This document shows, one piece after another, positions 29,428-40,762 of a DNA stretch of 43,676 nt (position 1 is the first letter of the stretch; every line of letters starts with the position of its first letter). Made by a program: the position numbers and the translations under genes. The notes beneath the pieces are model-generated. The model did not search any database. It worked only from the letters and a program-made list of their open reading frames with translations, and was not told where the DNA came from. Source of the stretch: Thermoleophilaceae bacterium (lineage in GTDB: Bacteria; Actinomycetota; Thermoleophilia; Solirubrobacterales; Thermoleophilaceae); NCBI GenBank assembly GCA_016929195.1, contig JAFGJG010000051.1, positions 1 through 43,676 on the forward strand, written 5' to 3'.

Positions 29428-31158
29428 GTGCCGACCGCCCCCATCGAGTTCCCGCCGCCCGTCGACTCCGAGAAGGAGTTCGTCGGTGCGCCGACCGATC
29501 CGGAGGACGAGCGGATCGAGGTCGGCGTGGCGATCGTCGGGGGCGGCCCGGCGGGCCTGGCCTGCGCGATCCGGCTGACGCAGCTGCTCGCCGAGGACGA
29601 GGCTCTGCTCGAGTCGCTCGGCGAGGTGCCGGTGGCGCTCGTGGAGAAGGGCAAGGGGCCGGGCTCGCACCTGCTGTCGGGGGCGATGATGAACCCGTCG
29701 GCGATGAAGAAGCTCTTCCCGGACCTGCCCGAGGAGGAGTGGCCGACCTACGGGACGGTCCCGAAGGACGCGGTCTACCTGCTGCCGAACTCGAAGCGGG
29801 CCATCCCGCTCAAGCCGACCCCGCCGCCGTTCCGCAACCACGGCAACCACGTCACGTCGGTCGCTCAGCTCGGCCGCTGGCTCGCCCAGCAGGCCGAGGA
29901 CGCCGGCGTGTACATCCTCGGCGAGACCGCCGCCGCCAAGCTGCTCGTGGACGACGGCCGCGTGGTGGGCGTGCGCAGCGGGGACAAGGGCCGCGGGCGC
30001 GAGGGCCAGGAGCTCTCGAACTTCGAGCCCGGCGCCGACCTGATGGCCAAGGCCACCGTGCTCGCCGAGGGGACCCAGGGCCATCTCACCGGCGCCGCGA
30101 TCCGCCACTTCGGCCTCGGCTCCGAGGACCCGCAGCAGTGGGAGCTCGGCGTCAAGGAGATCTGGGAGGTCGAGCAGCCGCTCGACCGCGTGATCCACAC
30201 GATGGGCTGGCCGCTCAGGTTCGCGGCCAAGTACCGCGAGTTCGGCGGCTCGTTCCTCTACCCGATGGGCGAGGACAAGGTGTCGATGGGGTTCGTGGTC
30301 GGCCTCGACTACCGCGACGCCCGCTTCTCGGTGCACGACGCGCTCCAGGAGCTGAAGTCGCATCCGCTTGTCGCGAAGATCATCGAGGGCGGCAAGCGCG
30401 TGGGCTGGGGGGCCAAGACGATCCCCTCCGGCGGCTACTGGGCGATGCCGGACAAGCTCTGGGCCCCGGGCATGGTCATCGCCGGCGACGGCGCCGGCAT
30501 GGTCAACATCCCGAAGCTGAAGGGCGTGCACCTCGCGATGCACGCGGGCATGTTCGCGGCCGAGTCGATCTTCGAGCGGTTGAAGGCCGGGTCCATCGAC
30601 GACCTCTCCAACTACACGGAGAAGGTCAAGGGCTCGGAGATCGAGACGGACATCCGCCGCTCCCGGAACATGCGCCAGCCGTTCGCGAAGGGCTTCTTCG
30701 TCGGCGGCGCGGTGGTCAACGCGATGGAGGTCTCCGGCGGGCGCTTCCCCGGCGGCCGCTGGGCCACGCACGACGACGCCACGGTGGACGTGTTCATCGG
30801 CAAGGAGCGCGACTACCCGAAGCCGGACGGCAAGAAGACCTTCGACAAGCTGTCCTCGGTCTTCACCACGGGCAACGCGACGCGCGACGACGCGCCCAAC
30901 CACATCCGCGTGCAGGACAAGGTCCCGCTCGAGGTGGCGCTCATGTGGCAGAACATGTGCCCAGCGCAGGTCTACGAGGTGCCCGAGGAGGAGCTCGAGG
31001 CCGCGCAGCAGAACGGCAACGGGAAGCTCGACGGCAAGCACGAGGTCAAGCTGCACATCACCCCGTCGAACTGCGTGCAGTGCGGGGCGATCACCGCCAA
31101 GGGCGGCCGGCTGACGCCGCCCGAGGGCGGCGACGGGCCGAACTACCAGCAGACCTGA
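29428..31158 (+). CDS. ETF-quinone oxidoreductase
   Basis: A 576-residue ETF-QO (FixC plus FixX fused), which passes electrons from reduced ETF to membrane quinone, here probably menaquinone. The FAD motif is VAIVGGGPAGLACAIRL at ~33-49; the second FAD/quinone region includes GDGAGMVNIPKLKGVH. At the C-terminus the cluster region has Cys511 (NMCPAQ), Cys549 and Cys552 (NCVQCGA), but the position of the usual fourth ligand is Ile555 (C-x-x-C-x-x-I). The 4Fe-4S centre therefore has one cysteine fewer than mitochondrial and FixX-type proteins. The GTG start directly follows etfA. A repeat-type hairpin follows the stop. Confidence 0.92.
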   Translation: MPTAPIEFPPPVDSEKEFVGAPTDPEDERIEVGVAIVGGGPAGLACAIRLTQLLAEDEALLESLGEVPVALVEKGKGPGSHLLSGAMMNPSAMKKLFPDLPEEEWPTYGTVPKDAVYLLPNSKRAIPLKPTPPPFRNHGNHVTSVAQLGRWLAQQAEDAGVYILGETAAAKLLVDDGRVVGVRSGDKGRGREGQELSNFEPGADLMAKATVLAEGTQGHLTGAAIRHFGLGSEDPQQWELGVKEIWEVEQPLDRVIHTMGWPLRFAAKYREFGGSFLYPMGEDKVSMGFVVGLDYRDARFSVHDALQELKSHPLVAKIIEGGKRVGWGAKTIPSGGYWAMPDKLWAPGMVIAGDGAGMVNIPKLKGVHLAMHAGMFAAESIFERLKAGSIDDLSNYTEKVKGSEIETDIRRSRNMRQPFAKGFFVGGAVVNAMEVSGGRFPGGRWATHDDATVDVFIGKERDYPKPDGKKTFDKLSSVFTTGNATRDDAPNHIRVQDKVPLEVALMWQNMCPAQVYEVPEEELEAAQQNGNGKLDGKHEVKLHITPSNCVQCGAITAKGGRLTPPEGGDGPNYQQT

Positions 31159-31160
31159 TG

Positions 31161-31206
31161 GCAGCCGGGGGCTCGCGCCCCCGGACCCCAGCGTGCGCTG
31201 GCCGGT
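31161..31206 (-). repeat. single inverted copy of a hairpin repeat
   Basis: Read on the minus strand, this segment matches the units at 38767-38904: ACCGGCCAG, a variable stretch, then GGGGTCCGGGGGC, the loop GCGA, GCCCCCGG and TGCCATC. The stem arms CCGGGGGC (31165-31172) and GCCCCCGG (31177-31184) are perfect, and the minus-strand loop GCGA is a GNRA tetraloop. It sits directly after the ETF operon and between convergent genes, so it may also act as the terminator. Confidence 0.8.
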
Positions 31207-31212
31207 CGCTGG

Positions 31213-31488
31213 TTATTCGCCGATCGAGAACATCGACTCGAGGTCGTGCTTCGAGTAGACCTCGAAGGCGACCATCGTGTGCGTGCGCTCGATGCCCGGA
31301 AGCTTCGCGAGCCCCGCCGCCACGACGTCCGCCAGGCGCTCGGTCTCGCTCACGCGCACCATCGCGACGAAGTCCCACTCGCCGGTGACCGAGTAGGCCT
31401 CGGCCACGCCGTCCACGTCGGCGAGCACTTCGCCCAGGCCGTCGAGGGAGTCGTGGGCCGCCTTGATGAGCACGATCGCGTGGGTCAC
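31213..31488 (-). CDS. stand-alone Lrp/AsnC ligand-binding (RAM) domain
   Basis: A 91-residue protein consisting only of the effector domain of Lrp/AsnC regulators: AIVLIKAAHDSLDGLGEVLA, then VAEAYSVTGEWDFVAMVRV and GIERTHTMVAFEVYSK, the beta-alpha-beta-beta-alpha-beta pattern of the RAM fold. There is no DNA-binding helix-turn-helix. Such single-domain forms assemble as dimers to decamers and bind amino acids. The GTG at 31488 begins the domain exactly; the longer open frame upstream runs across the divergent hydrolase. Its role may be metabolite sensing, and the partner is unknown. Confidence 0.85.
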   Translation of the reverse strand: MTHAIVLIKAAHDSLDGLGEVLADVDGVAEAYSVTGEWDFVAMVRVSETERLADVVAAGLAKLPGIERTHTMVAFEVYSKHDLESMFSIGE

Positions 31489-31519
31489 GGCCGACACCGT
31501 ACTGCGAGAAGATGCGAGC

Positions 31520-32254
31520 GTGGAGCTGGCCGTGCGCACCGAGGGCAGCGGGCCGCGCCTGGTGCTCGTGCACGGAGGCGTCGGGCCCGAGCTCTCCTGG
31601 GAGCGGCAGCTGCCGCTGGCCGAGCGCTGGACGCTCGTGATCCCGTGGCGGCGCGGGTACGGGGAGAGCCCGCCGGCCGAGCGCCAGGACTTCGAGGCCG
31701 ACGCCGAGGACCTGGACGCCCTCGTCGAGCCGGGGGACAGGCTGGTCGCGTTCTCGTACGGCGGGCTGTCGGCCGCGATCGTCGCTGGACGGCGCGCGGA
31801 GGAGCTCGACTCGCTCGTGCTGATCGAGCCGCCGCTGTTCGCGCTCGGACCGGACGACCCGCTGATCAGCCCGATGATGGAGCTGTCCGCGCGCTTCACC
31901 TCAGGTGAGACCGAGGACGACCCCGAGGCGCACTGGCGCTTCCTGACGATGGCCGGCGTCAAGCGCCCGCGCGACGCCGCCGACGCCCGCCGGATCGAGC
32001 GGCTCACGCGGCTGGCCCTTCACCTGCGCGCGCCCGTCGAGGCGCGCCCGGACCTGGCCGCGGTGCGCACGGCCGGCGTTCCCGTCCTCTCGGTGTCCGG
32101 CGAGCACAACCCGGCGATCGAGCGGATCTGCGACCTGATCACGGAGCGGGCGGGCGGCGAGCGGCTGCGCCTGCCCGGGGCCGGCCACCCGGTGCAGCGC
32201 GTGCCCGGCTTCAACGAGCGGCTCGAGGAGTTCCTGGTCCGCCCGCGCCGATAG
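31520..32254 (+). CDS. alpha/beta hydrolase-fold protein
   Basis: A 244-residue alpha/beta hydrolase. The oxyanion segment is LVHGGVGPELSW, the nucleophile elbow is VAFSYGGLSA and the histidine is in GAGHPVQRV. Two positions are atypical: the elbow reads A-F-S-Y-G-G rather than G-x-S-x-G, and the usual acid site reads SGEHNPAIERI, with Asn where G-E-x-D would have Asp. It may still work with another acid, or have become a binding protein. The GTG at 31520 is the only in-frame start outside the divergent RAM-domain gene. Its frame continues past the stop into the gpsA region. Confidence 0.82.
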   Translation: MELAVRTEGSGPRLVLVHGGVGPELSWERQLPLAERWTLVIPWRRGYGESPPAERQDFEADAEDLDALVEPGDRLVAFSYGGLSAAIVAGRRAEELDSLVLIEPPLFALGPDDPLISPMMELSARFTSGETEDDPEAHWRFLTMAGVKRPRDAADARRIERLTRLALHLRAPVEARPDLAAVRTAGVPVLSVSGEHNPAIERICDLITERAGGERLRLPGAGHPVQRVPGFNERLEEFLVRPRR

Positions 32255-32329
32255 CGTGCCCACATCCGCTACCCGGGCCAGCATGCACGCCGCGTCGCCG
32301 TAGTCGGCGCGGGCTCCTTCGGCACCGCG

Positions 32330-33364
32330 GTGGCGCTCCTCCTCGAGCGCGCCGGTCTGAGGACCACGCTGCTCACGCGCGGCCCGGAGCAGGCCGCGGA
32401 GCTGGCCCAGTCGCGGCAGAACGCCCGCTACCTGCCCGGGGTGGACATCCCGCGCGACCTCCGCGTCCACGCGCTCGGGGCGGAGGCCGACGACCTCGGC
32501 CGCGCCGACCTCGTGTTCGTGGCCGTGCCGTCCAAGGCGATCGCGCACGCGGTCGGGGAGATCATCCACCTGGGCGTGTCCGACCGCGCCGGCGTCGTCT
32601 CGCTCGCGAAGGGCCTCGTGCCGCCGGACGGCACGCCGCCGACCATCGCGCTCGAGGAGGCGTTCGGGGGCGACCGAGTGGCATGCGTGGGCGGGCCCGC
32701 CCACGCGCGCGAGATGGTCGAGTCGGGCGCCGGACTCGTGGCCGCCTCCCATTCCGAGGTGCTCGCGCACGGCGTGGCCGAGGCGTTCCAGGCCGGGGGC
32801 GTCGTCTGCGAGGTCTCCGACGACCCGGTCGGCGTGGAGCTCGCCGGCGTGGCGAAGAACGCGGCCGCGGTGGCGGTCGGCGCGACCCAGGCCCAGGGGC
32901 TCAACGCCGCCGGGATGGCGGCGGCCGACATCTTCCTCGAGGTGCTGGCGCTCGCCGTCACCACGGGCGGACAGGCGCGGACGTTCGTCGGCCGCGCCGG
33001 CACCGGCGACCTGGTGGCCACGGCGCTCGCCCCCAGCTCGCGCAACCGAACCGCGGGCGAGCTGCTCGCCCAGGGCATCCCCGCCGCCGAGATCCCGGAC
33101 CGCGTGGGCCAGGCGGTGGAGGCGCTCGAGACGGTGCGGCTGCTCTCCGGGGCGATCGAGCGGGCTGGGCTCGAGGCGCCGGTGGTGTCGGCGCTGGCGC
33201 GGCTGATCGAGGGCACGCTGCCGCTCGACGACTGGATCGCGCTGGTCAGGGCGAAGCAGCCGGAGCCCGCCCGCTTCGGCCGCCGGCTGCGCGGCCGGCC
33301 CGGCTGGTGGGCGCGGCTCACCGCCTGGTTCCGCGAGCACTTCGGAAGGCGCGGCCGTGAGTAG
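32330..33364 (+). CDS. gpsA: glycerol-3-phosphate dehydrogenase [NAD(P)+], 5' end disturbed
   Basis: The 344-residue reading from the first usable start (GTG) contains most of GpsA: the substrate domain with the catalytic lysine in [32 protein letters not shown], and a C-terminal basic extension. It would make sn-glycerol-3-phosphate for phospholipid synthesis. The NAD(P)-binding glycine strand, [20 protein letters not shown], is encoded in the same frame from 32288, upstream of that GTG. Between the stop at 32252-32254 and 32330 this frame has no ATG, GTG or TTG. An ATG at 32283 is one base out of frame. Either an unusual start (ATC at 32264), a one-base deletion, or a sequence error is involved. 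Confidence 0.8.
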
Positions 33365-33368
33365 AATC

Positions 33369-33374
33369 GGAGAG
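33369..33374 (+). promoter_or_regulatory. ribosome-binding site of rpmE
   Basis: GGAGAG three bases before the ATG at 33378 favours this start over the upstream in-frame GTG inside gpsA. Confidence 0.4.
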
Positions 33375-33377
33375 ACC

Positions 33378-33584
33378 ATGAAGCAGGAGACCCACCCCGA
33401 GTACGTCCCGGCACACGTGCGCTGCACGTGCGGGAACGAGTTCTGGACCCGTTCCACCAAGGGCGAGCTCCACGTGGAGATCTGCTCGAACTGCCACCCG
33501 TTCTACACGGGCAAGCAGAAGCTGGTCGATACCGGCGGGCGCGTGGAGCGCTTCCGCCGGCGCGCCGCTCGTTCGCGCGGCTAG
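33378..33584 (+). CDS. rpmE: 50S ribosomal protein bL31
   Basis: A 68-residue bL31 of the zinc-binding (C+) form: Cys16 and Cys18 in VRCTCGN and Cys36 and Cys39 in [15 protein letters not shown]. It sits on the large subunit at the intersubunit bridge. The ATG at 33378 reproduces the usual N-terminus MKQETHPEY; an upstream in-frame GTG lies inside gpsA. Its placement near DUF1385 and prfA is the common arrangement in Gram-positive bacteria. Confidence 0.96.
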
Positions 33585-33624
33585 ACAGCGCAACTAGCGG
33601 CCTTTCGAGCTGTTCTCTCGGAGC

Positions 33625-34359
33625 ATGGCCAAACGCGTCGTCATAACCGCGGTGCTCGCGCTCCTCGTGGGGGCCGCGCCGAGCTCGGCCGCGTCCGCCT
33701 GGCCGGCGGGGGTGAAGGTGGACCGCTGCTCGCGCCTGCTCGACGAGGCCGTCTTCCACGGGAAGATGCGCGGCGTCAAGGACAGCGAGCGCATGGCCAT
33801 GCGCTTCACGCTGCTCGAGCGCACCGGCACCGAGGGCTTCCTTCCGGTCTCCGCGCCGAAGCTCGGCCGGTGGCACCGGTCGCGGCCCGGCGTGGCGCGC
33901 TTCGGCTACAGGCAGATCGTGCGCAACCTCGCGCAGGGGAGCGTCTACGCCATGAAGGTCGACTTCCGATGGTTCGACGAGGACGGAAGGATCGTCAAGC
34001 GGGCCCGCAGGCGCTCCGCGAGCTGCCCCGATCCGAAGGCGCTCCCGAACCTGCGCGTGCGGATCACGGGCGTGAAGAGGACCGCGGACCCAGACACCGA
34101 CCGCTACTTCGTGAAGGTCATGAACTGGGGGCAGGCGCCGGCGGAGAGCGTGCCCGTCAGCCTCTCGGTGGACGGGGTGCTGGGAGGCAGCGTGACCGTT
34201 CCGCTGCTGTATTCGAAGAGCTCCAAGGTGGTGACGATCCGGGCGCCAGAGTGCGGCGGCTACGCGTCGGCCGAGGCCGATCCTGACGGCCTGATCGCGG
34301 AGACCTCCGAGCTCGACAACGGCCACCAGCTGGCCTGCCAGGACCTGACGAAGCGCTGA
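33625..34359 (+). CDS. secreted CARDB-like protein
   Basis: A 244-residue exported protein with a signal peptide (about residues 1-24, ending SSAASA). The first half is basic, with a conserved-looking RFTLLERTGTEGF segment and a paired cysteine; the second half (PNLRVRITGVKR to DNGHQLACQ) has the pattern of a CARDB/adhesion-type beta domain: N-W-G-x-A-x-x-V-P-V-S-L-x-V-D-G, a Val-Val-T-I strand and a final LDNG. No enzyme motif is present. It lies between rpmE and DUF1385, interrupting the usual neighbours. Confidence 0.72.
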   Translation: MAKRVVITAVLALLVGAAPSSAASAWPAGVKVDRCSRLLDEAVFHGKMRGVKDSERMAMRFTLLERTGTEGFLPVSAPKLGRWHRSRPGVARFGYRQIVRNLAQGSVYAMKVDFRWFDEDGRIVKRARRRSASCPDPKALPNLRVRITGVKRTADPDTDRYFVKVMNWGQAPAESVPVSLSVDGVLGGSVTVPLLYSKSSKVVTIRAPECGGYASAEADPDGLIAETSELDNGHQLACQDLTKR

Positions 34360-34394
34360 GAAGGCTCGCGGACAGGCGCCGCCGCGCCGATACG

Positions 34395-35432
34395 ATGGGC
34401 GAGGTGAGCGCTCTCCCGTCCAGCAACGGCGCGTCCCCGCGCCCGGCGCGGGAGGCCACGAAGGACGCCCCGATCGGCGGCCAGGCCGTGCTCGAGGGCG
34501 TGATGATGCGCGGCATCTCCACGTGGGCCGTGGCGGTGCGGAAGCCCTCGCCGGAGCAGCTCGAGGCCGGCGGCCCGGACGCGAAGGAGGGCGCCAAGGG
34601 CGACATCGAGGTCTTCTCCGAGCCGCTCGTCTCCTGGACCAAGAAGCACCGGCTGCTGCGGCTCCCGGTGATCCGCGGGACCGTCGCGCTCGCCGAGTCG
34701 CTCAAGATCGGCTTCGCGGCGCTCGGAATCTCCGCCAACGCGCAGATGCCGCCCGACGAGGAGGGCGAGCACAAGGAGCTGAGCGGCGGCGCCTGGGCGG
34801 GGACGATCGCGTTCGCGCTGCTGTTCGCCGTCGGCCTGTTCTTCCTGCTGCCGGCGGGGCTCACGAACATCTTCCGCGACGACATCCCGAACGGGTTCGT
34901 CTTCGTGGTCATCGAGAAGCTGGTCCGGATCACGATCTTCCTCGCCTACCTGTGGCTGATCTCGCGGATGCCGGACCTCCAGCGCGTCTTCCAGTACCAC
35001 GGCGCGGAGCACAAGACGATCTCCTGCTACGAGGCCGGCCAGCCGCTGACGCCGGAGAACGCCCAGCAGTTCTCGCGCTTCCACCCGCGCTGCGGCACCA
35101 GCTTCCTGCTGCTCGTGATGATCGTGGCCATCGTCGTCTTCGCCCCGCTCGGGAAGCTCGACTGGCAGTGGCTGTTCATCTCGCGCGTGCTCGGGATCCC
35201 GATCGTCGCCGGGCTCGCCTTCGAGCTGATCAAGTGGTTCGGGCGCAACCGCACCAAGGCGTGGGCGCGGGCCCTGATGTGGCCGGGCATCCAGCTGCAG
35301 CGGCTGACCACGCGCGAGCCCGACCTCTCCCAGCTCGCCGTGGCGATCGCCGCCCTTGACGCCGTGCTCGCGGTCGAGAACCCGCGCGAGGCGACGGCCG
35401 AGGACAAGGTCGGGATGGAAGTGGTCGCCTAG
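34395..35432 (+). CDS. DUF1385-family membrane protein
   Basis: A 345-residue DUF1385 protein. The N-terminal motif PIGGQAVLEGVMMRG and the later LPVIRGTVALAESL are diagnostic, and the segment YHGAEHKTISCYEAG followed by FHPRCGTSFLLLV (Cys and His residues suited to metal binding) is complete. At least four membrane helices follow. Function is unknown, but in many Gram-positive genomes it lies between rpmE and prfA, as it does here apart from the inserted envelope genes. The TAG is interlocked with the stop of the convergent small gene (CTAG). Confidence 0.88.
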   Translation: MGEVSALPSSNGASPRPAREATKDAPIGGQAVLEGVMMRGISTWAVAVRKPSPEQLEAGGPDAKEGAKGDIEVFSEPLVSWTKKHRLLRLPVIRGTVALAESLKIGFAALGISANAQMPPDEEGEHKELSGGAWAGTIAFALLFAVGLFFLLPAGLTNIFRDDIPNGFVFVVIEKLVRITIFLAYLWLISRMPDLQRVFQYHGAEHKTISCYEAGQPLTPENAQQFSRFHPRCGTSFLLLVMIVAIVVFAPLGKLDWQWLFISRVLGIPIVAGLAFELIKWFGRNRTKAWARALMWPGIQLQRLTTREPDLSQLAVAIAALDAVLAVENPREATAEDKVGMEVVA

Positions 35433-35581
35433 GCGATCTCTTCGGAGCGCAGCACGGCGCGCTCCAGCTCCTCCGCGAGGAGCAGTGCCTGGGCGGGGTC
35501 GAGCCGGACGGTCGCGATGCGCCCGAACCAGTCGTGCGTGACGGCCACCGCGACGTCGGCGCCGTGGCCGGCGACCAGCAC
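35429..35581 (-). CDS. small protein of unknown function
   Basis: A 50-residue protein from the GTG at 35581, which has GGAGAGG five bases upstream. An in-frame GTG at 35614 would add 11 residues but directly abuts the double palindrome and has no ribosome site. The C-terminal helix LDPAQALLLAEELERAV resembles the short amphipathic helix found in many small actinobacterial proteins. The stop forms CTAG with that of DUF1385. Codon usage fits a real gene; no family is assigned. Confidence 0.5.
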   Translation of the reverse strand: MLVAGHGADVAVAVTHDWFGRIATVRLDPAQALLLAEELERAVLRSEEIA

Positions 35582-35614
35582 GCTTTCCTCTCCGAGTGTC
35601 TCGATCTCGCTCAC

Positions 35615-35650
35615 GTTAGGGTGCCTAAGCAGAACTTAGGGAACCCTAAC
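35615..35650. promoter_or_regulatory. double TTAGG/CCTAA palindrome (operator or hairpin)
   Basis: Two adjacent inverted repeats, TTAGG-3-CCTAA and TTAGG-4-CCTAA, have left halves 20 bases apart (35616 and 35636), two helical turns. They nest in one larger palindrome with outer arms GTTAGGGT/ACCCTAAC and inner arms CCTAAG/CTTAGG. The element is AT-rich for this genome. It could be an operator of the DtxR/IdeR kind, whose half-sites are also TTAGG/CCTAA although the centre does not match consensus, or the terminator hairpin of tatA. Confidence 0.55.
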
Positions 35651-35662
35651 AAGAGAAGCGAG

Positions 35663-35824
35663 TCAGGACTTCCCAGAGTCCTCCCCGCCGCTGATCGAGC
35701 TCTTGAACTCGCGCATGCCGCCGCCGAGCGAGCGCCCGAGGTCGGGCAGCCGCTTCGGCCCGAAGATGACCAGCGCGATCACCAGGACGACGATCAGTTC
35801 CATGGGTCCGACTCCGGGGAGCAT
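35663..35824 (-). CDS. tatA: Sec-independent translocase protein TatA
   Basis: A 53-residue TatA/TatE protein. It opens MLPGVGPMELIVVLVIALVI, then FGPKRLPDLGRSLG, the invariant hinge and start of the amphipathic helix, and continues GGMREFKSSISG, a short version of the family (usually 60-90 residues). TatA lines the pore that exports folded proteins carrying twin-arginine signals. The ATG at 35824 has GAGAGGA seven bases upstream. It is transcribed away from two exported ferritin-like proteins, one with a twin-arginine signal. Confidence 0.93.
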   Translation of the reverse strand: MLPGVGPMELIVVLVIALVIFGPKRLPDLGRSLGGGMREFKSSISGGEDSGKS

Positions 35825-35837
35825 GTGATTCCTCTCG

Positions 35838-35999
35838 TTAGGACTTGACGAACGGCTCGACGGCCTTCAGCACCTGCGGCATCTCCAGGCTCTTGTCGAA
35901 CCCGCCGTCGGTGATCGGCACGTCGTTCAGCTGCCGAGAGTGGCTCGGGCCGGTTCCCTCCGGCCTGGGCGCTTCCTTCGTGACCCCGGCGGGATCGGA
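35838..35999 (-). pseudogene. C-terminal remnant of a ferritin-like protein
   Basis: An open stretch of 53 codons, closed upstream by an in-frame TGA and lacking any suitable start (only a GTG giving 27 residues). It encodes strongly biased, gene-like codons ending DGGFDKSLEMPQVLKAVEP-FVKS. The pattern V-P-x-x-D-x-F-D-x-x-L-x-x-x-x-V-L-x-x-V-x-x-F-V matches the C-terminal tail of the ferritin-like protein at 36720-37388 (VVPAPDAFDEPLPRRRVL). It lies directly upstream of tatA on the same strand. It is best read as the tail of a third, decayed family member. Confidence 0.5.
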
Positions 36000-36054
36000 T
36001 CAGTCGCCGTCCTCCGCTGATCCGAACCCGCGCCGGCCTCGCAGGAACCTGGGA

Positions 36055-36723
36055 ATGCGTCGTTTCCATGCCCTGAGCCAGCGCAATGCCGAGCCGGCGC
36101 GCGTGACGGTGGAGCTTGTGGCGGAGGTCGGGCCCGGCACGTCCCGGACAGGCTTCCTCGAGCGTGCCGTGGTCGCCGGGGGCGCCCTGGTCAGCGGCGG
36201 CGTCCTCCTGGCGGGATTGCCACGCCTGGCGGCGTCGGCGCCGTCCCCGGAGCAGGACGTGAAGACGCTGAACTTCGTCCTCCTGATCGAGGGCCTGCAG
36301 GCGCGCTTCTACGCGGAGGCCCTGCGGCGGGCGCAGCTGAGCGGCGAGACGCGCGAGTTCGCCGGGCGCGTCGGCGAGCACGAGCGCGTCCATCTCGGCG
36401 CCCTGCGCGACCTGCTCGGGAGGGACGCGCGCTCGCTGCCCGAGTTCGACCTGGGCGACACCGTGAGCGATCCCCGGCGCTTCCGGGCGTCCGCGGCGGC
36501 AATCGAGGAGATCGGGCTGGCCGCGTACAACGGGCAGGCCACCAATCTCACGCCTGACGCGCTGGCAGAGGCGGCCAAGATCGCGTCCGTCGAGGCGCGT
36601 CACGCTTCCTGGGCGCGCGGGCTCGCGGGCAGCACCCCCGCGCCGCGCGCCTCCGATCTGGCGGCGAGCGAGGACCGGTCGCGCGAGTCGCTCGCGCGGC
36701 GCGGCCTGCTGGAGCGGCCGTGA
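36055..36723 (+). CDS. exported ferritin-like protein 1
   Basis: A 222-residue protein with a four-helix ferritin-like domain. A membrane/export segment lies at ~39-57, preceded by SRTGFLERAVVAGG, which looks like a Tat signal with a single arginine. Candidate metal ligands are Glu79 (LLIEGLQARFY), Glu110 and His113 (EHERVH), Glu151 and Glu180/His183 (VEARH). Related proteins belong to the DUF4439/ferritin-like exported family of unknown role; iron or oxidative-stress functions are suspected by fold only. AGGA upstream supports the ATG at 36055. The stop overlaps the GTG of the next paralogue. Confidence 0.8.
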   Translation: MRRFHALSQRNAEPARVTVELVAEVGPGTSRTGFLERAVVAGGALVSGGVLLAGLPRLAASAPSPEQDVKTLNFVLLIEGLQARFYAEALRRAQLSGETREFAGRVGEHERVHLGALRDLLGRDARSLPEFDLGDTVSDPRRFRASAAAIEEIGLAAYNGQATNLTPDALAEAAKIASVEARHASWARGLAGSTPAPRASDLAASEDRSRESLARRGLLERP

Positions 36724-37388
36724 GGATCGGCGCGCTGCGCCTGTCCGAGCTCGACCGGGGCGGCGCCGTCGAGGAGACGGCGAGCCGTGCCGGCGCGCTG
36801 ACCCGCCGCGGCCTCCTGGGCGGAGGCGCGGTCCTGGCCGCCGGGCTCGCGGCGCCGGCCGCGGAGGCCCAGGGGTCGGACGAGGACATCCTCAACTACG
36901 CGCTCGCGCTCGAGTACCTCCAGGCCGCCTTCTACACCGAGGCCGAGCGGCTCGGCGCGCTGCGGGGCGCCTTCGCCGAGCAGGCCCGGGTGGTGGGCGC
37001 GCACGAGCGTGCGCACGTGACGGCGCTGCGCGACGCGCTCGGCGGCGCGGCGATCAGGCGCCCGCGCTTCGACTTCGGCGGAGTCACCGAGGACCAGCCG
37101 GCGTTCCGCCGGACGGCCGTGGCCTTCGAGGACCTGGGCACGGCCGCGTACAAGGACCAGGCGCCGCGCATCCGCTCGCGCGCCTACCTGGCGGCGGCGC
37201 TGCGGATCCACTCGGTCGAGGCGCGCCATGCCGCCTGGATCCGGAGGCTCGCGGGAGTGGTGCCGGCCCCGGACGCGTTCGACGAGCCGCTCCCGCGGCG
37301 CAGGGTGCTCCGCGTGGTCGCGGACACCGGCTTCGTCACCTCCGCGCCCCGCACGAGCGCTTTCGGTAGCCCCCGATTCACCGGCTGA
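36720..37388 (+). CDS. exported ferritin-like protein 2 with Tat signal
   Basis: A 222-residue paralogue of the preceding gene. The twin arginine (TRRGLLGGGAVLAAG, Arg29-Arg30) followed by an Ala-rich hydrophobic stretch ending AAEAQ is a regular Tat signal. The domain carries Glu65, Glu96 and His99 (HERAH), Glu137 and Glu167/His170 (VEARH), the same carboxylate and histidine layout. The two genes are coupled (GTGA). The pair is followed by an L,D-transpeptidase whose ATG overlaps this stop by one base (TGATG). Confidence 0.82.
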   Translation: MRIGALRLSELDRGGAVEETASRAGALTRRGLLGGGAVLAAGLAAPAAEAQGSDEDILNYALALEYLQAAFYTEAERLGALRGAFAEQARVVGAHERAHVTALRDALGGAAIRRPRFDFGGVTEDQPAFRRTAVAFEDLGTAAYKDQAPRIRSRAYLAAALRIHSVEARHAAWIRRLAGVVPAPDAFDEPLPRRRVLRVVADTGFVTSAPRTSAFGSPRFTG

Positions 37389-38164
37389 TGAGCCGGCGCG
37401 CGTACGCGTCGCTCGGAGCGGTGCTGTGCGCTCTCGGCGTCGTGGTCGTCGCCTCGTCGTCGGCCCACCGCGAGCCGCCGTCTCCGCTCGGTCTGCCCGA
37501 GCCGCCGCCGCCGGCCTTCCGGATACCGGTGCCGCGACCGCTCGCGCCGGATCGCGACCTCGCCCGCTGGGCCCCGGTCCGGCGAGCGACCACGGCCCGC
37601 CGCGCGCCCGGCGCGGACCAGGCCGCGGTCGCGCGCGTGGACGCGCGCACCCCCGAGGGCACGACAAACATCGTCCAGGTCGCCGGCCGCGCCCGGCGCG
37701 CGGGCGGCCGCCTCTGGGTGAGGGCCCGGCTGGCGGTGCTCCCGAACGGCACGTCGGGGTGGGTGCCGCGCCGCTCGCTGGGCGGGTACACACAGGTCCG
37801 CACCAGGCTCCTCGTGGAGCGGCGGGCGCTGCGGGCGCGGCTGTTCCGAGGCGGGCACGTGGTCCTCACGGCCCCGATCGGCATCGGCACCGACGAGCAC
37901 CCCACGCCCGTCGGCCGCTTCTACGTGCGCAACCGGCTGACGAGCTACCGCAGCCCGGCCTACGGGCCGCTCGCCTTCGGCACGAGCGCCCGCTCGCCCG
38001 TCCTGACGGACTGGCCGGCGGGCGGCTACGTCGGCATCCATGGCACGGACAGGCCGGAACGGCTGCCGGGCCGCGTGTCGCACGGGTGCGTCCGGATGCG
38101 GAATGCCGACATCCGCCGGCTCGGCCGCCTGATGCCCGTGGGCACCCCGGTGATCGTGCGGTGA
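37388..38164 (+). CDS. L,D-transpeptidase (YkuD)
   Basis: A 258-residue exported L,D-transpeptidase. After a signal or anchor helix (~8-26) and a Pro/Arg-rich linker comes an SH3-like stretch (GRLWVRARLAVLPNGTSGWV), then the YkuD domain: HPTPVGRFYV, IHGTD (His218) and the catalytic SHGCVRMRN (His232, Cys234). It forms 3-3 cross-links in peptidoglycan or attaches proteins to it. It is coupled to both neighbours, suggesting co-expression with the exported ferritin-like pair. Confidence 0.93.
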   Translation: MSRRAYASLGAVLCALGVVVVASSSAHREPPSPLGLPEPPPPAFRIPVPRPLAPDRDLARWAPVRRATTARRAPGADQAAVARVDARTPEGTTNIVQVAGRARRAGGRLWVRARLAVLPNGTSGWVPRRSLGGYTQVRTRLLVERRALRARLFRGGHVVLTAPIGIGTDEHPTPVGRFYVRNRLTSYRSPAYGPLAFGTSARSPVLTDWPAGGYVGIHGTDRPERLPGRVSHGCVRMRNADIRRLGRLMPVGTPVIVR

Positions 38165-38712
38165 GAGGGCTCGCGCTGCTGGCCGCGCTCGTCGCCCTCG
38201 CCGCGACTCCGTGCGCCGCCGGTGCTCAGGAGCCGGGCGCGGGCGCGCCGGACAAGCTGACCGAGCGGTACCCGCTCGGCGAGCGGCTGAGGGAGCCGAC
38301 CGACCACGCCGATCGCGGGACGGCGCGCCCGGGGGAGCCGCGGGAGCAGGGGCCGCCGCTCTGGCCGTTCGTCGCGATCCCGCTTGCGATCGCGGTGGGC
38401 CTCCTGGCGCTCGCCGTATACGCGCGCGGGGGCCCGCCGGCGGCCTACGGCTACGCGATCGACGAGCGGCCGCGGCCGCGCCGCGAGGTGTCGCCCGAGG
38501 TCCTGCACGCGCTGAGGGGGCTGCTCCGGTACGACCGCCGCCGCGACGCGCACGTCCTGAGGGTGGTCGGGCACCGGGTCGGGCCCGTCCTATGGGCCGA
38601 GCCGCCGCGCCGGACGGGGCGCTTCGATCGCGAGGACCCGCGCCCGGCCGAGCGGGAGCACGCGTCGCACTCGCCACCGCGCGGCGACACCCGTCGACAT
38701 CACCCGTCCTGA
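38161..38712 (+). CDS. exported or membrane protein of unknown function
   Basis: A 183-residue protein with an N-terminal signal segment (VRGLALLAALVALAATPCAA), a short conserved-looking stretch KLTERYPLGERLREPT, one membrane helix (LWPFVAIPLAIAVGLLALAV, about 61-80) and a basic, disordered C-terminus. The N-terminal cysteine of ATPCAAG is not in a clear lipobox. It overlaps the transpeptidase by four bases (GTGA). The function is unknown. Confidence 0.65.
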   Translation: MRGLALLAALVALAATPCAAGAQEPGAGAPDKLTERYPLGERLREPTDHADRGTARPGEPREQGPPLWPFVAIPLAIAVGLLALAVYARGGPPAAYGYAIDERPRPRREVSPEVLHALRGLLRYDRRRDAHVLRVVGHRVGPVLWAEPPRRTGRFDREDPRPAEREHASHSPPRGDTRRHHPS

Positions 38713-38766
38713 CTTTGCCGCCCTTATGGCGGTCAACTCCGGAATGGACGGGCCGAGGCGGGCCGG

Positions 38767-38904
38767 GTGCCGCGGGGGTTCGGGGGCGTGAGCCCCCGGA
38801 TGCCGGAAACCGGCCAGGTGCCGCGGGGGGCCGGGGGCGTGCCCCCGGATGCCGGAAACCGGCCAGGTGCCGCGGGGGTCCGGGGGCGTGAGCCCCCGGA
38901 TGCC
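38767..38904 (+). repeat. three tandem ~50-bp GNRA-hairpin repeats
   Basis: Units of 51, 49 and 38 bases (38767-38817, 38818-38866, 38867-38904) share GTGCCGCGGGGG, a hairpin and GATGCC, and the first two continue GGAAACCGGCCAG. The stems are CGGGGGC/GCCCCCG with loop GTGA (38781-38798), CCGGGGGC/GCCCCCGG with loop GT (38831-38848), and TCCGGGGGC/GCCCCCGGA with loop GTGA (38879-38900). GTGA is a GNRA tetraloop. A copy in the opposite orientation follows the ETF operon. The array separates the envelope genes from prfA and nothing else was seen in this 200-base gap. Confidence 0.88.
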
Positions 38905-38915
38905 ATCCTTATCCC

Positions 38916-39971
38916 GTGATCGAGAGGCTCGTTGAGCAGATCGAGGGGCGTTTCACCGAGCTGTCGGGCCAGATGTCCGACCCGGAGGTGATCGGGGACC
39001 ATCGGCGCTATGCGGACGTGGGGCGCGCCTATCGCGCGCTCGAGCACGCGAACGAGCTGGCCCAGGAGTGGCGGCGAGCCACCGACGACGCGGCCGGCGC
39101 GCGCGAGCTTCTCTCCGAGGGCGACGAGGACGCTGAGGTGCGCGAGATGCTGGAGGCCGCCGAGTCACGCCTCGGCGAGCTCGAGGAGGAGATCCGCCTC
39201 GCCATGGTCGAGCCGGACCCGAACGACGAGAAGAACGTGATCGTCGAGGTGCGCGGGGGCGCGGGCGGGGAGGAGGCGGGGCTGTTCGCCGGCGACCTGT
39301 TCCGGATGCTCACCCGCTACGCGGAGCGGCGCGGCTTCAAGACCGAGGTCCTGTCGACGGCCGAGGGCGACCACACCTTCGCCATCAAGGGGAACGGCGC
39401 CTACAGCGTCTTCAAGCACGAGGGCGGCACACATCGGGTTCAGCGCGTGCCCGAGACCGAGTCGCAGGGGCGGATCCACACGTCCACCGCCACGGTGGCG
39501 GTCCTGCCTGAGGCCGAGGAGGTGGACGTCCAGGTGGACCCGAACGACCTCCAGATCGACGTGTACCGCTCGTCGGGGCCGGGCGGCCAGTCCGTGAACA
39601 CCACCGACTCGGCCGTACGCATCACCCACAAGCCGACGGGCCTGGTGGTGTCGATGCAGGACGAGAAGTCGCAGCTTCAGAACCGCGAGAAGGCGATGCG
39701 CGTCCTGCGCGCGCGCCTGCTCGAGCGCGAGGTGGCCGCGCAGCAGGCCGACCTGGCGGCCGACAGGAAGGCCCAGGTGGGCACGGGCGAGCGCTCCGAG
39801 AAGATCCGGACGTACAACTTCCCCCAGGACCGGGTCACCGACCACCGCGTGAAGCTCACGAAGGGGGACGTCGCGCGGGTGCTCGCGGGCGACCTGGACG
39901 ACTTCAGCGCCGCGCTCGAGGCGGACGAGAAGCGGCGCAAGCTCGAGTCGGGCGCCCTCGTCACGGGGTGA
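38916..39971 (+). CDS. prfA: peptide chain release factor 1
   Basis: A 351-residue class I release factor. The GGQ loop [20 protein letters not shown] is intact. The stop-codon recognition element follows [18 protein letters not shown], with P-E-T filling the P-x-T position that identifies RF1 (UAA/UAG) rather than SPF of RF2. The GTG at 38916 gives a normal N-terminus, just 11 bases after the repeat array. It overlaps prmC by four bases, so the factor and its methylating enzyme are made together. Confidence 0.97.
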
Positions 39972-40762
39972 CCGCTCGCGAGGTGCTGGACGCGGCCGTG
40001 CCGGCGCTCGCCGCCGCGGGCTGCGACACGCCGCGCCTCGACGCGGAGCTGCTCGTGGCGTCCGCGCTCGGCGTGGATCGAGCCGCGCTGGTCACCGAGC
40101 CAGGGACGCCGGTCCCGCCGGCGGCGTCGCGGCTGCTGTCGGAATGGGTGCGCCGCCGCGGGGCGCGGGAGCCCGTGGCCTACATCCTCGGCCGCAAGGG
40201 CTTCCGCCGGATCGAGCTGGACGTGGACGCGCGCGTGCTGATCCCGCGCCCGGAGACGGAGCTGCTCGTCGAGCTCGCGCTGGATCTGCCGGAGGGCGCG
40301 CGCGTGCACGACGTGGGGACCGGCTCGGGCGCGGTCGCGCTCGCGCTGCTCGACGAGCGGCCGGATCTGGCGGTGAGCGCGTCGGACCGCTCGCCGGCGG
40401 CGGTGGCCGTGGCGCGCGCGAATGCGCAGCGCCTTCACCTCTCGCTGAGCGTCGAGGTGGCCGACGGGCTGCCGGACGGCGACTACGAGCTGGTGCTCGC
40501 CAACCTTCCCTACGTGCGCGAGGACGAGTGGGCCGGGCTGGCCCCCGAGATCACCCGGCACGAGCCGCGCGAGGCGCTGGTGGCGGGGGAGGACGGGCTC
40601 GACGCGATCCGCGCGCTGGTGGCGGGCGCGCCCGCCGGAACGCACCTCGCGCTCGAGCACGCCCCGGACCAGGGGGAGGCGGTGCGGGCGCTCCTGCACG
40701 CCCCGTCGACCTACGAGGATCTGGCCGGGCGCGAGCGCGTTACGGCCGGGAGCGTGCCGTGA
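39968..40762 (+). CDS. prmC: release factor glutamine methyltransferase
   Basis: A 264-residue PrmC/HemK. The N-terminal helical domain is followed by the SAM fold ([14 protein letters not shown]) and the substrate motif [10 protein letters not shown] (N-x-P-Y), which methylates the Gln of GGQ in release factors. The GTG overlaps the prfA stop. It is coupled to the Sua5/YrdC gene downstream. Confidence 0.95.

What the first reader, a model, noticed from the sequence alone, without database searches (positions are those of the whole stretch)
38767..38904. Undescribed ~50-bp repeat built on GNRA-capped hairpins, tandem here and inverted 7.6 kb away
Three tandem units of 51, 49 and 38 bases each hold a 7-9 bp GC stem; two of the three are capped by GTGA, a GNRA tetraloop. 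A fourth copy at 31161-31206 lies in the opposite orientation, with the same flanks (ACCGGCCAG ahead of the stem, TGCCATC after it) and a loop changed to GCGA, which is still GNRA. The loop substitution keeps the tetraloop class, and the stems stay paired, so the structure seems to matter as RNA rather than as plain DNA. The elements lie after operons. They may be a REP-like family that doubles as a terminator or mRNA 3'-end protector.
Basis: partly seen in the sequence, partly recalled or inferred. Interest (0 to 1): 0.65.

Follow-up and report, generated by a model that had tools for sequence, protein, structure and literature searches.

The report
REP-like hairpin repeats at gene ends
This bacterium (order Solirubrobacterales) has scattered about sixty copies of a ~50-base, very GC-rich hairpin repeat, often butted against the stop codons of genes; it behaves like the REP repeats of other bacteria but has none of their usual tags or transposase, so it is a new, modestly interesting family rather than a new kind of thing.

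Summary
The repeat is real: three direct units at 38758-38907 (+) and one inverted unit at 31157-31206 (-). They belong to a family of about 58 units in 29 clusters in this 3.46-Mb genome. Three of 231 other genomes of the order carry it: one of the same genus (34 units) and two of a sister genus (25 and 10). Consensus: ACCGGCCAGGTGYCGCGGGGGTCCGGGGGCGYGAGCCCCCGGCTGCCATCA. Only loop position 2 varies (GCGA, GTGA, GGGA; never GNAA), the stem is almost invariant within the genome, and the gene whose stop codon the element abuts transcribes the other strand, where the loop reads UCGC, UCAC or UCCC. The strongest signal is position: the stem starts 3-10 nt after an opposite-strand stop codon in 42 of 89 clusters (4.7% expected). 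In ETF-QO the element is fused to the stop (TGATGGCAGCC) with the protein unchanged. Convergent gene pairs outnumber divergent ones 24 to 4. No Y1/RAYT transposase, GTAG or CGTC tag, head-to-head dimer or U-tract was found. Best reading: a lineage-restricted REP-like repeat that spreads by an unknown route and acts as a U-tract-less gene-end hairpin. Function is inferred, not shown.

The parts
38758..38807 (+). repeat unit 1; stem-loop CGGGGGC-GTGA-GCCCCCG at 38781-38798
   Evidence: CM R1 match 44.2 bits; sequence
38809..38856 (+). repeat unit 2, 2 bases shorter; 7-bp stem with loop CGTG at 38831-38848
   Evidence: CM R1 match 46.4 bits; sequence
38858..38907 (+). repeat unit 3, canonical; CCGGGGGC-GTGA-GCCCCCGG at 38880-38899
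   Evidence: CM R1 match 75.8 bits
31157..31206 (-). single inverted copy; CCGGGGGC-GCGA-GCCCCCGG at 31165-31184; its 3' end overlaps the ETF-QO stop codon by 2 nt (TGATGGCAGCC on +)
   Evidence: CM R1 match 71.6 bits
29428..31158 (+). ETF-ubiquinone oxidoreductase gene whose TGA stop (31156-31158) abuts the inverted copy
   Evidence: Pfam PF21162 and PF05187; relatives end at the same residue without the repeat
31213..31479 (-). C-terminal part of an Lrp/AsnC-type gene converging on the copy (stop at 31213-31215; start not determined)
   Evidence: Pfam PF01037, E 4.5e-16
38916..39971 (+). prfA (peptide chain release factor 1), starts 8 nt after the array; no relative that could be read carries the array there
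   Evidence: (annotated prfA homologues)

Best explanation
It is a lineage-restricted, REP-like repetitive palindrome. Each unit is a ~50-nt sequence with one 8-bp GC stem, and it disperses through the genome by a route I could not identify. Copies that persist sit mostly in 3' regions, with the TGCCATC(A) end butted against or overlapping the stop codon of the opposite-strand gene. From there they most likely act on the transcript as a very stable gene-end hairpin (about -29 to -34 kcal/mol per unit) that marks or protects the 3' end: RNA polymerase pausing or Rho-assisted 3'-end formation and a block to 3' exonucleases, working from both sides between convergent genes. Local slippage or unequal exchange then expands single units into head-to-tail arrays. 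Shown: family, copy number, structure potential, stop-codon register, 3' bias, turnover between relatives, absence of Y1/RAYT. Inferred: the transcript-level role and the mode of spread.
For: Own genome: 58 units in 29 clusters. Stem starts 3-10 nt after an opposite-strand stop codon in 42 of 89 clusters against 4.7% expected from random noncoding placements; mode 6 nt in both congeners. Convergent 24 versus divergent 4 (p = 1.8e-4) against 6 versus 7 gene pairs in the window. ETF-QO keeps its length (GPNYQ.T*) with or without the repeat, so the copy was added at the stop without truncation. Thiolase 3' ends carry the repeat in three genomes and an unrelated hairpin of 8 bp or more in 10 of 25 others (2.8% of shuffles), so the repeat occupies a slot often filled by other gene-end hairpins. 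REPs of other bacteria have the same 3' location (PMC3733652).
Against: No U-tract after the stem on either strand (sequence). Some copies are not in 3' regions, including the prfA-upstream array and a few divergent loci. The 3' bias can also arise because insertions elsewhere are lost. Clusters are not independent (arrays split over contig ends, shared ancestry), and gene calls come from my own codon model. At the ETF-QO stop only 2 of 18 relatives have another hairpin of 8 bp or more, so that slot is not generally a hairpin site. No expression data exist here.
Confidence: 0.5

Rival explanations
1. Purely selfish or neutral dispersed repeat: it inserts anywhere or near stop-like sites, and only copies outside coding and promoter DNA survive; the hairpin serves its own replication or transposition as DNA.
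For: Patchy distribution: 4 of 232 genomes of the order, absent from one congener. Few positions shared between relatives. Array homogenisation within loci but not between loci. The DNA strand also folds, -19.2 kcal/mol.
Against: The exact 6-nt register to the stop and the dearth in divergent regions are stronger than simple tolerance predicts, unless the target site itself is stop-like. No mobilising enzyme was found.
Confidence: 0.32
2. Translation-coupled control: a hairpin starting 3-10 nt after the stop codon slows the terminating ribosome and leads to mRNA cleavage and trans-translation, as reported for E. coli REPs within 15 nt of the stop codon.
For: Distances of 3-10 nt lie inside the 15-nt limit reported for E. 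coli (PMC12306157, citing earlier work).
Against: Only one of the two sides of the element has this spacing; the other strand's stops lie mostly 19-65 nt away. Untested here.
Confidence: 0.1
3. MIRU-like element inserted at stop/start overlaps: TGATGG makes a stop-start overlap and 51-, 45- or 57-base units stay in frame, giving a small translated repeat.
For: TGATGGC junctions; unit spacings 45, 51 and 57.
Against: Other arrays have spacings of 49, 52, 46, 40 and 47; the ATG is lost in many copies and absent in most copies of G018; many copies lie between convergent genes, where coupling is impossible.
Confidence: 0.03
4. DNA-level element, such as a gyrase or nucleoid-protein site that relieves supercoiling between convergent genes.
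For: Location between convergent genes; palindromic in DNA.
Against: Low copy number (about 58 units) and no direct test.
Confidence: 0.05

Closest known systems
REP elements, GTAG and CGTC super-families (Di Nocera et al. 2013, PMC3733652)
   Same: Short, multi-copy extragenic palindromes; stem 8 bp, loop 4; mostly between convergent or codirectional genes and close to 3' ends; ends often supply or abut a stop codon; sporadic distribution.
   Different: No GTAG (2 of about 64 terminal units; GCAG is commonest in the own genus) or CGTC tag next to the stem; head-to-tail arrays, not head-to-head dimers; no Y1/RAYT gene in 8 genomes.
E. coli REP/BIME as defined in PMC12306157
   Same: Meets the broad definition: extragenic, palindromic, short, alike, multi-copy; some within 15 nt of stop codons.
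   Different: Different sequence and host; longer conserved unit (about 50 nt); no inverted BIME pairing.
MIRU/VNTR units of Mycobacterium tuberculosis (PMC2734929)
   Same: 40-100-bp interspersed units, locally tandem, in intergenic DNA of an actinobacterium.
   Different: From my own knowledge MIRUs lack dyad symmetry and lie within operons; here each unit is built on a hairpin and many copies lie between convergent genes.
Intrinsic terminators
   Same: GC-rich hairpin just after the stop codon.
   Different: No U-tract, and a conserved 50-nt sequence shared between unrelated loci.

Membership tests
REP (broad definition of PMC12306157) | extragenic location | tested here: met
   Most clusters lie between predicted genes; 6 of 89 were called inside an open frame by my codon model
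REP (broad definition of PMC12306157) | palindromic, short, highly similar, multiple copies | tested here: met
   58 units, mean column identity 89% in 23 loci
GTAG REP super-family | unpaired GTAG next to the stem in >90% of members | tested here: not met
   GTAG in 2 units only; GCAG in 16 of about 64
GTAG REP super-family | associated RAYT (Y1_Tnp, PF01797) | tested here: not met
   0 of 8 genomes, 5 of them at least 90% complete; control rings in E. coli
CGTC REP super-family | terminal CGTC, AT pairs at stem base, CCA tail | tested here: not met
   No CGTC; all-GC stem
REP/BIME | predominantly head-to-head (inverted) dimers | tested here: not met
   Multi-unit arrays are direct repeats; apart from the window pair 7.6 kb apart, only two fetched loci hold an opposite neighbour, about 0.3 and 1.3 kb away
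Intrinsic terminator | U-rich tract after the stem | tested here: not met
   Sequence; 0 sites in 30000-40000
Rfam RNA families | match to a curated covariance model | tested here: not met
   0 matches at E <= 1 in 30000-40000
MIRU | no dyad symmetry, in-frame small ORF overlapping neighbouring genes (features from my own knowledge) | tested here: not met
   Hairpin in nearly all units; unit lengths not always multiples of 3; ATG not conserved
REP-type 3' mRNA protector or terminator | effect on 3' ends or mRNA decay | not testable with these tools
   No transcriptome data

The most novel reading that the evidence does not exclude
A mobile palindrome whose insertion target or retained end is the stop codon itself: its TGCCATC(A) terminus regenerates a stop (T|GA or TA|G) and delivers a ready-made gene-end hairpin, so the element spreads as a portable 3'-end module mobilised by a non-RAYT enzyme.
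Probability: 0.15. Interest if true: 0.65.

Novelty: new variant of a known kind. Interest (0 to 1): 0.36.

Why it matters
REPs have been sorted into two tagged super-families, one linked to a known transposase. A repeat with the same gene-end habit but no tag and no RAYT, in an under-studied actinobacterial order, would help to separate what selection at gene ends does from what one transposase does. The exact register to the stop codon makes that testable. As a stand-alone find it is modest.

Tried and rejected
GNRA-selection as RNA: rejected as unsupported, since only one loop position varies, GNAA never occurs, and the abutting gene reads the other strand. RAYT link: no Y1_Tnp in 8 genomes. 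Known RNA family: none. Wide or viral spread: the full-element pattern was found only in one other MAG of genome contigs, Solirubrobacterales bacterium AS06rmzACSIP_262, and not in viral contigs. Intrinsic terminator with U-tract: none. Covariation within the genome: none; across relatives only slight, with C-G to T-A at the outer pair in 3 units and matched run lengths of 4/4 and 6/6. Target-site duplication: none seen by eye at 31157-31206; no near-identical empty site was available. MIRU-like ORF: not conserved. A tRNA gene suspected beside L016 was not called by ARAGORN. A first loop-parsing script had a faulty pattern and was replaced.

Full report
What is there. The tandem array (38758-38907, +) and the inverted copy (31157-31206, -) are present as described. 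Spacings are 51 and 49. Loops are GTGA, CGTG and GTGA in the array and GCGA in the single copy, so the middle unit is not GNRA-capped. Tandem Repeats Finder gives the array the top score in the window, 242.

It is a family. The genome holding the window (G000, 3.46 Mb in 193 contigs, 97.6% complete) has about 58 units in 29 clusters by covariance model. BLAST found 28 places with the array and the core 16-mer occurs at 40 places against 0 for the reversed control. Several arrays lie at contig ends with matching unit types (C129/C162, C121/C19, C132/C183, C189/C36), so the number of distinct loci is nearer 25 and the arrays are probably longer than assembled. The consensus is ACCGGCCAGGTGYCGCGGGGGTCCGGGGGCGYGAGCCCCCGGCTGCCATCA (the last A).

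Distribution. Among 232 genomes of the order only four carry it: G000, G002 of the same genus, and G018 and G024 of one sister genus. A third congener (84% complete) has none. An exact pattern scan of 84,980 species representatives found it only in MAG Solirubrobacterales bacterium AS06rmzACSIP_262, apparently G024, since contig lengths agree (9853 and 5685); records near the window's own genome may be left out of that scan. Viral contigs gave nothing. The loops of the four genomes are GCGA, GTGA and GGGA; four units of G024 have a changed loop region, CGCGAGA.

Loop and stem. Of 108 unique parsed units, 107 have a GNGA loop and none has GNAA. That is one variable position inside a conserved sequence, not evidence of a conserved tetraloop class. 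In the own genome 0 of 12 predicted pairs show a two-sided change. Across genomes there are three C-G to T-A changes at the outer pair and a few matched changes of run length (4/4, 6/6), which is weak support for pairing. The fold is stable as RNA on both strands (-28.8 to -34.2 kcal/mol for the two own units) and as DNA (-17 to -19 kcal/mol). GCGAAGC-type DNA hairpins are known to be extraordinarily stable (PMC6582339), so the loop does not discriminate RNA from DNA.

Position. I made gene calls with a codon-usage model trained on the fetched DNA. In the orientation where the loop reads GNGA, the right end of the element often abuts a stop codon of the opposite strand. The stem starts 3-10 nt after that stop in 42 of 89 clusters against 4.7% of random noncoding placements, with 6 nt the commonest distance in G000 and G002. 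On the other side the distances spread over 19-53 nt in G002 and mostly 21-65 in G000. Convergent contexts outnumber divergent ones 24 to 4 (p = 1.8e-4), while the window itself has 6 convergent and 7 divergent neighbour pairs. The single copy in the window was miscalled codirectional by the model; Pfam shows it lies between ETF-QO (+) and an Lrp/AsnC gene (-) that converge. The transcript of the abutting gene therefore carries UCGC, UCAC or UCCC loops, not GNRA.

Comparative sites. ETF-QO ends at the same residue (GPNYQ.T* or close variants) in the relatives compared, and only G000 has the element there, fused as TGATGGCAGCC. So it was most simply gained at the stop without shortening the protein. 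Upstream of prfA no other relative that could be read carries the array (about ten loci were not parsed). At the thiolase 3' end G000, G002 and G018 carry the repeat, while 10 of 25 other genomes carry unrelated hairpins of 8 bp or more within 77 nt of the stop (2.8% of shuffles); after ETF-QO only 2 of 18 do. The D-Ala-D-Ala ligase / protein-kinase convergent pair carries it in G000 and G018. Most other positions are not shared, so the family turns over.

Mechanism. The data fit a REP-like repeat kept mainly at gene ends. I infer a role as a strong gene-end hairpin without a U-tract that limits transcription or decay at the 3' end, confidence 0.5, with a neutral or selfish reading at 0.32. 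Nothing here measures transcripts. The route of spread is unknown: no Y1 transposase occurs in eight genomes.

Relation to known kinds. Di Nocera et al. (PMC3733652) report that REPs lie mostly between convergent and codirectional genes, commonly within 20 bp of 3' ends, and that GTAG tags often supply the TAG stop. This element shares that habit and meets the broad REP definition of PMC12306157. It fails the defining features of both tagged super-families (GTAG in 2 of about 64 terminal units, CGTC in none), forms head-to-tail arrays, and has no RAYT. I therefore call it REP-like, an untagged variant, and not a member of the GTAG or CGTC families.

Limits. Gene calls and the null model come from fetched stretches and one window; clusters are not independent; the gene search used incomplete assemblies; weak covariance-model hits are included in the counts.

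Noticed in passing
window 38892-38918: Many relatives have TANNCT 7 nt before the prfA start codon, which looks like the -10 box of a leaderless mRNA. Here that slot reads CATCCT and overlaps the GCCATC end of the last repeat unit, so the array may have replaced part of the prfA promoter.
   Followed up: partly
L016:935-979 (G000 contig C163): Next to one copy lies GATCCCAGGTTCGAGTCCTGGTGGGTCC, which resembles a tRNA T-arm and 3' acceptor arm, but ARAGORN calls no tRNA; possibly a tRNA remnant.
   Followed up: partly
L199, L202, L203 (3' of thiolase in G017, G007, G020): Short tandem runs such as GCAGTCGGCAGT and GTTGACAGTT ahead of a terminator-like hairpin suggest a second, unrelated repeat family in this bacterial family.
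   Followed up: no
L066-L083 (G018): In G018 the conserved region extends further 5' (CCGCCACCGGAGCCGTAGGGCGAGAGCGGCGGGGG), so the unit there may be 70-100 nt; two arrays have spacings of 74-75 and 99.
   Followed up: partly
G000 contig ends C132, C121, C19, C183, C129, C162, C189, C36: Repeat arrays coincide with assembly breaks, so true array lengths are unknown.
   Followed up: no
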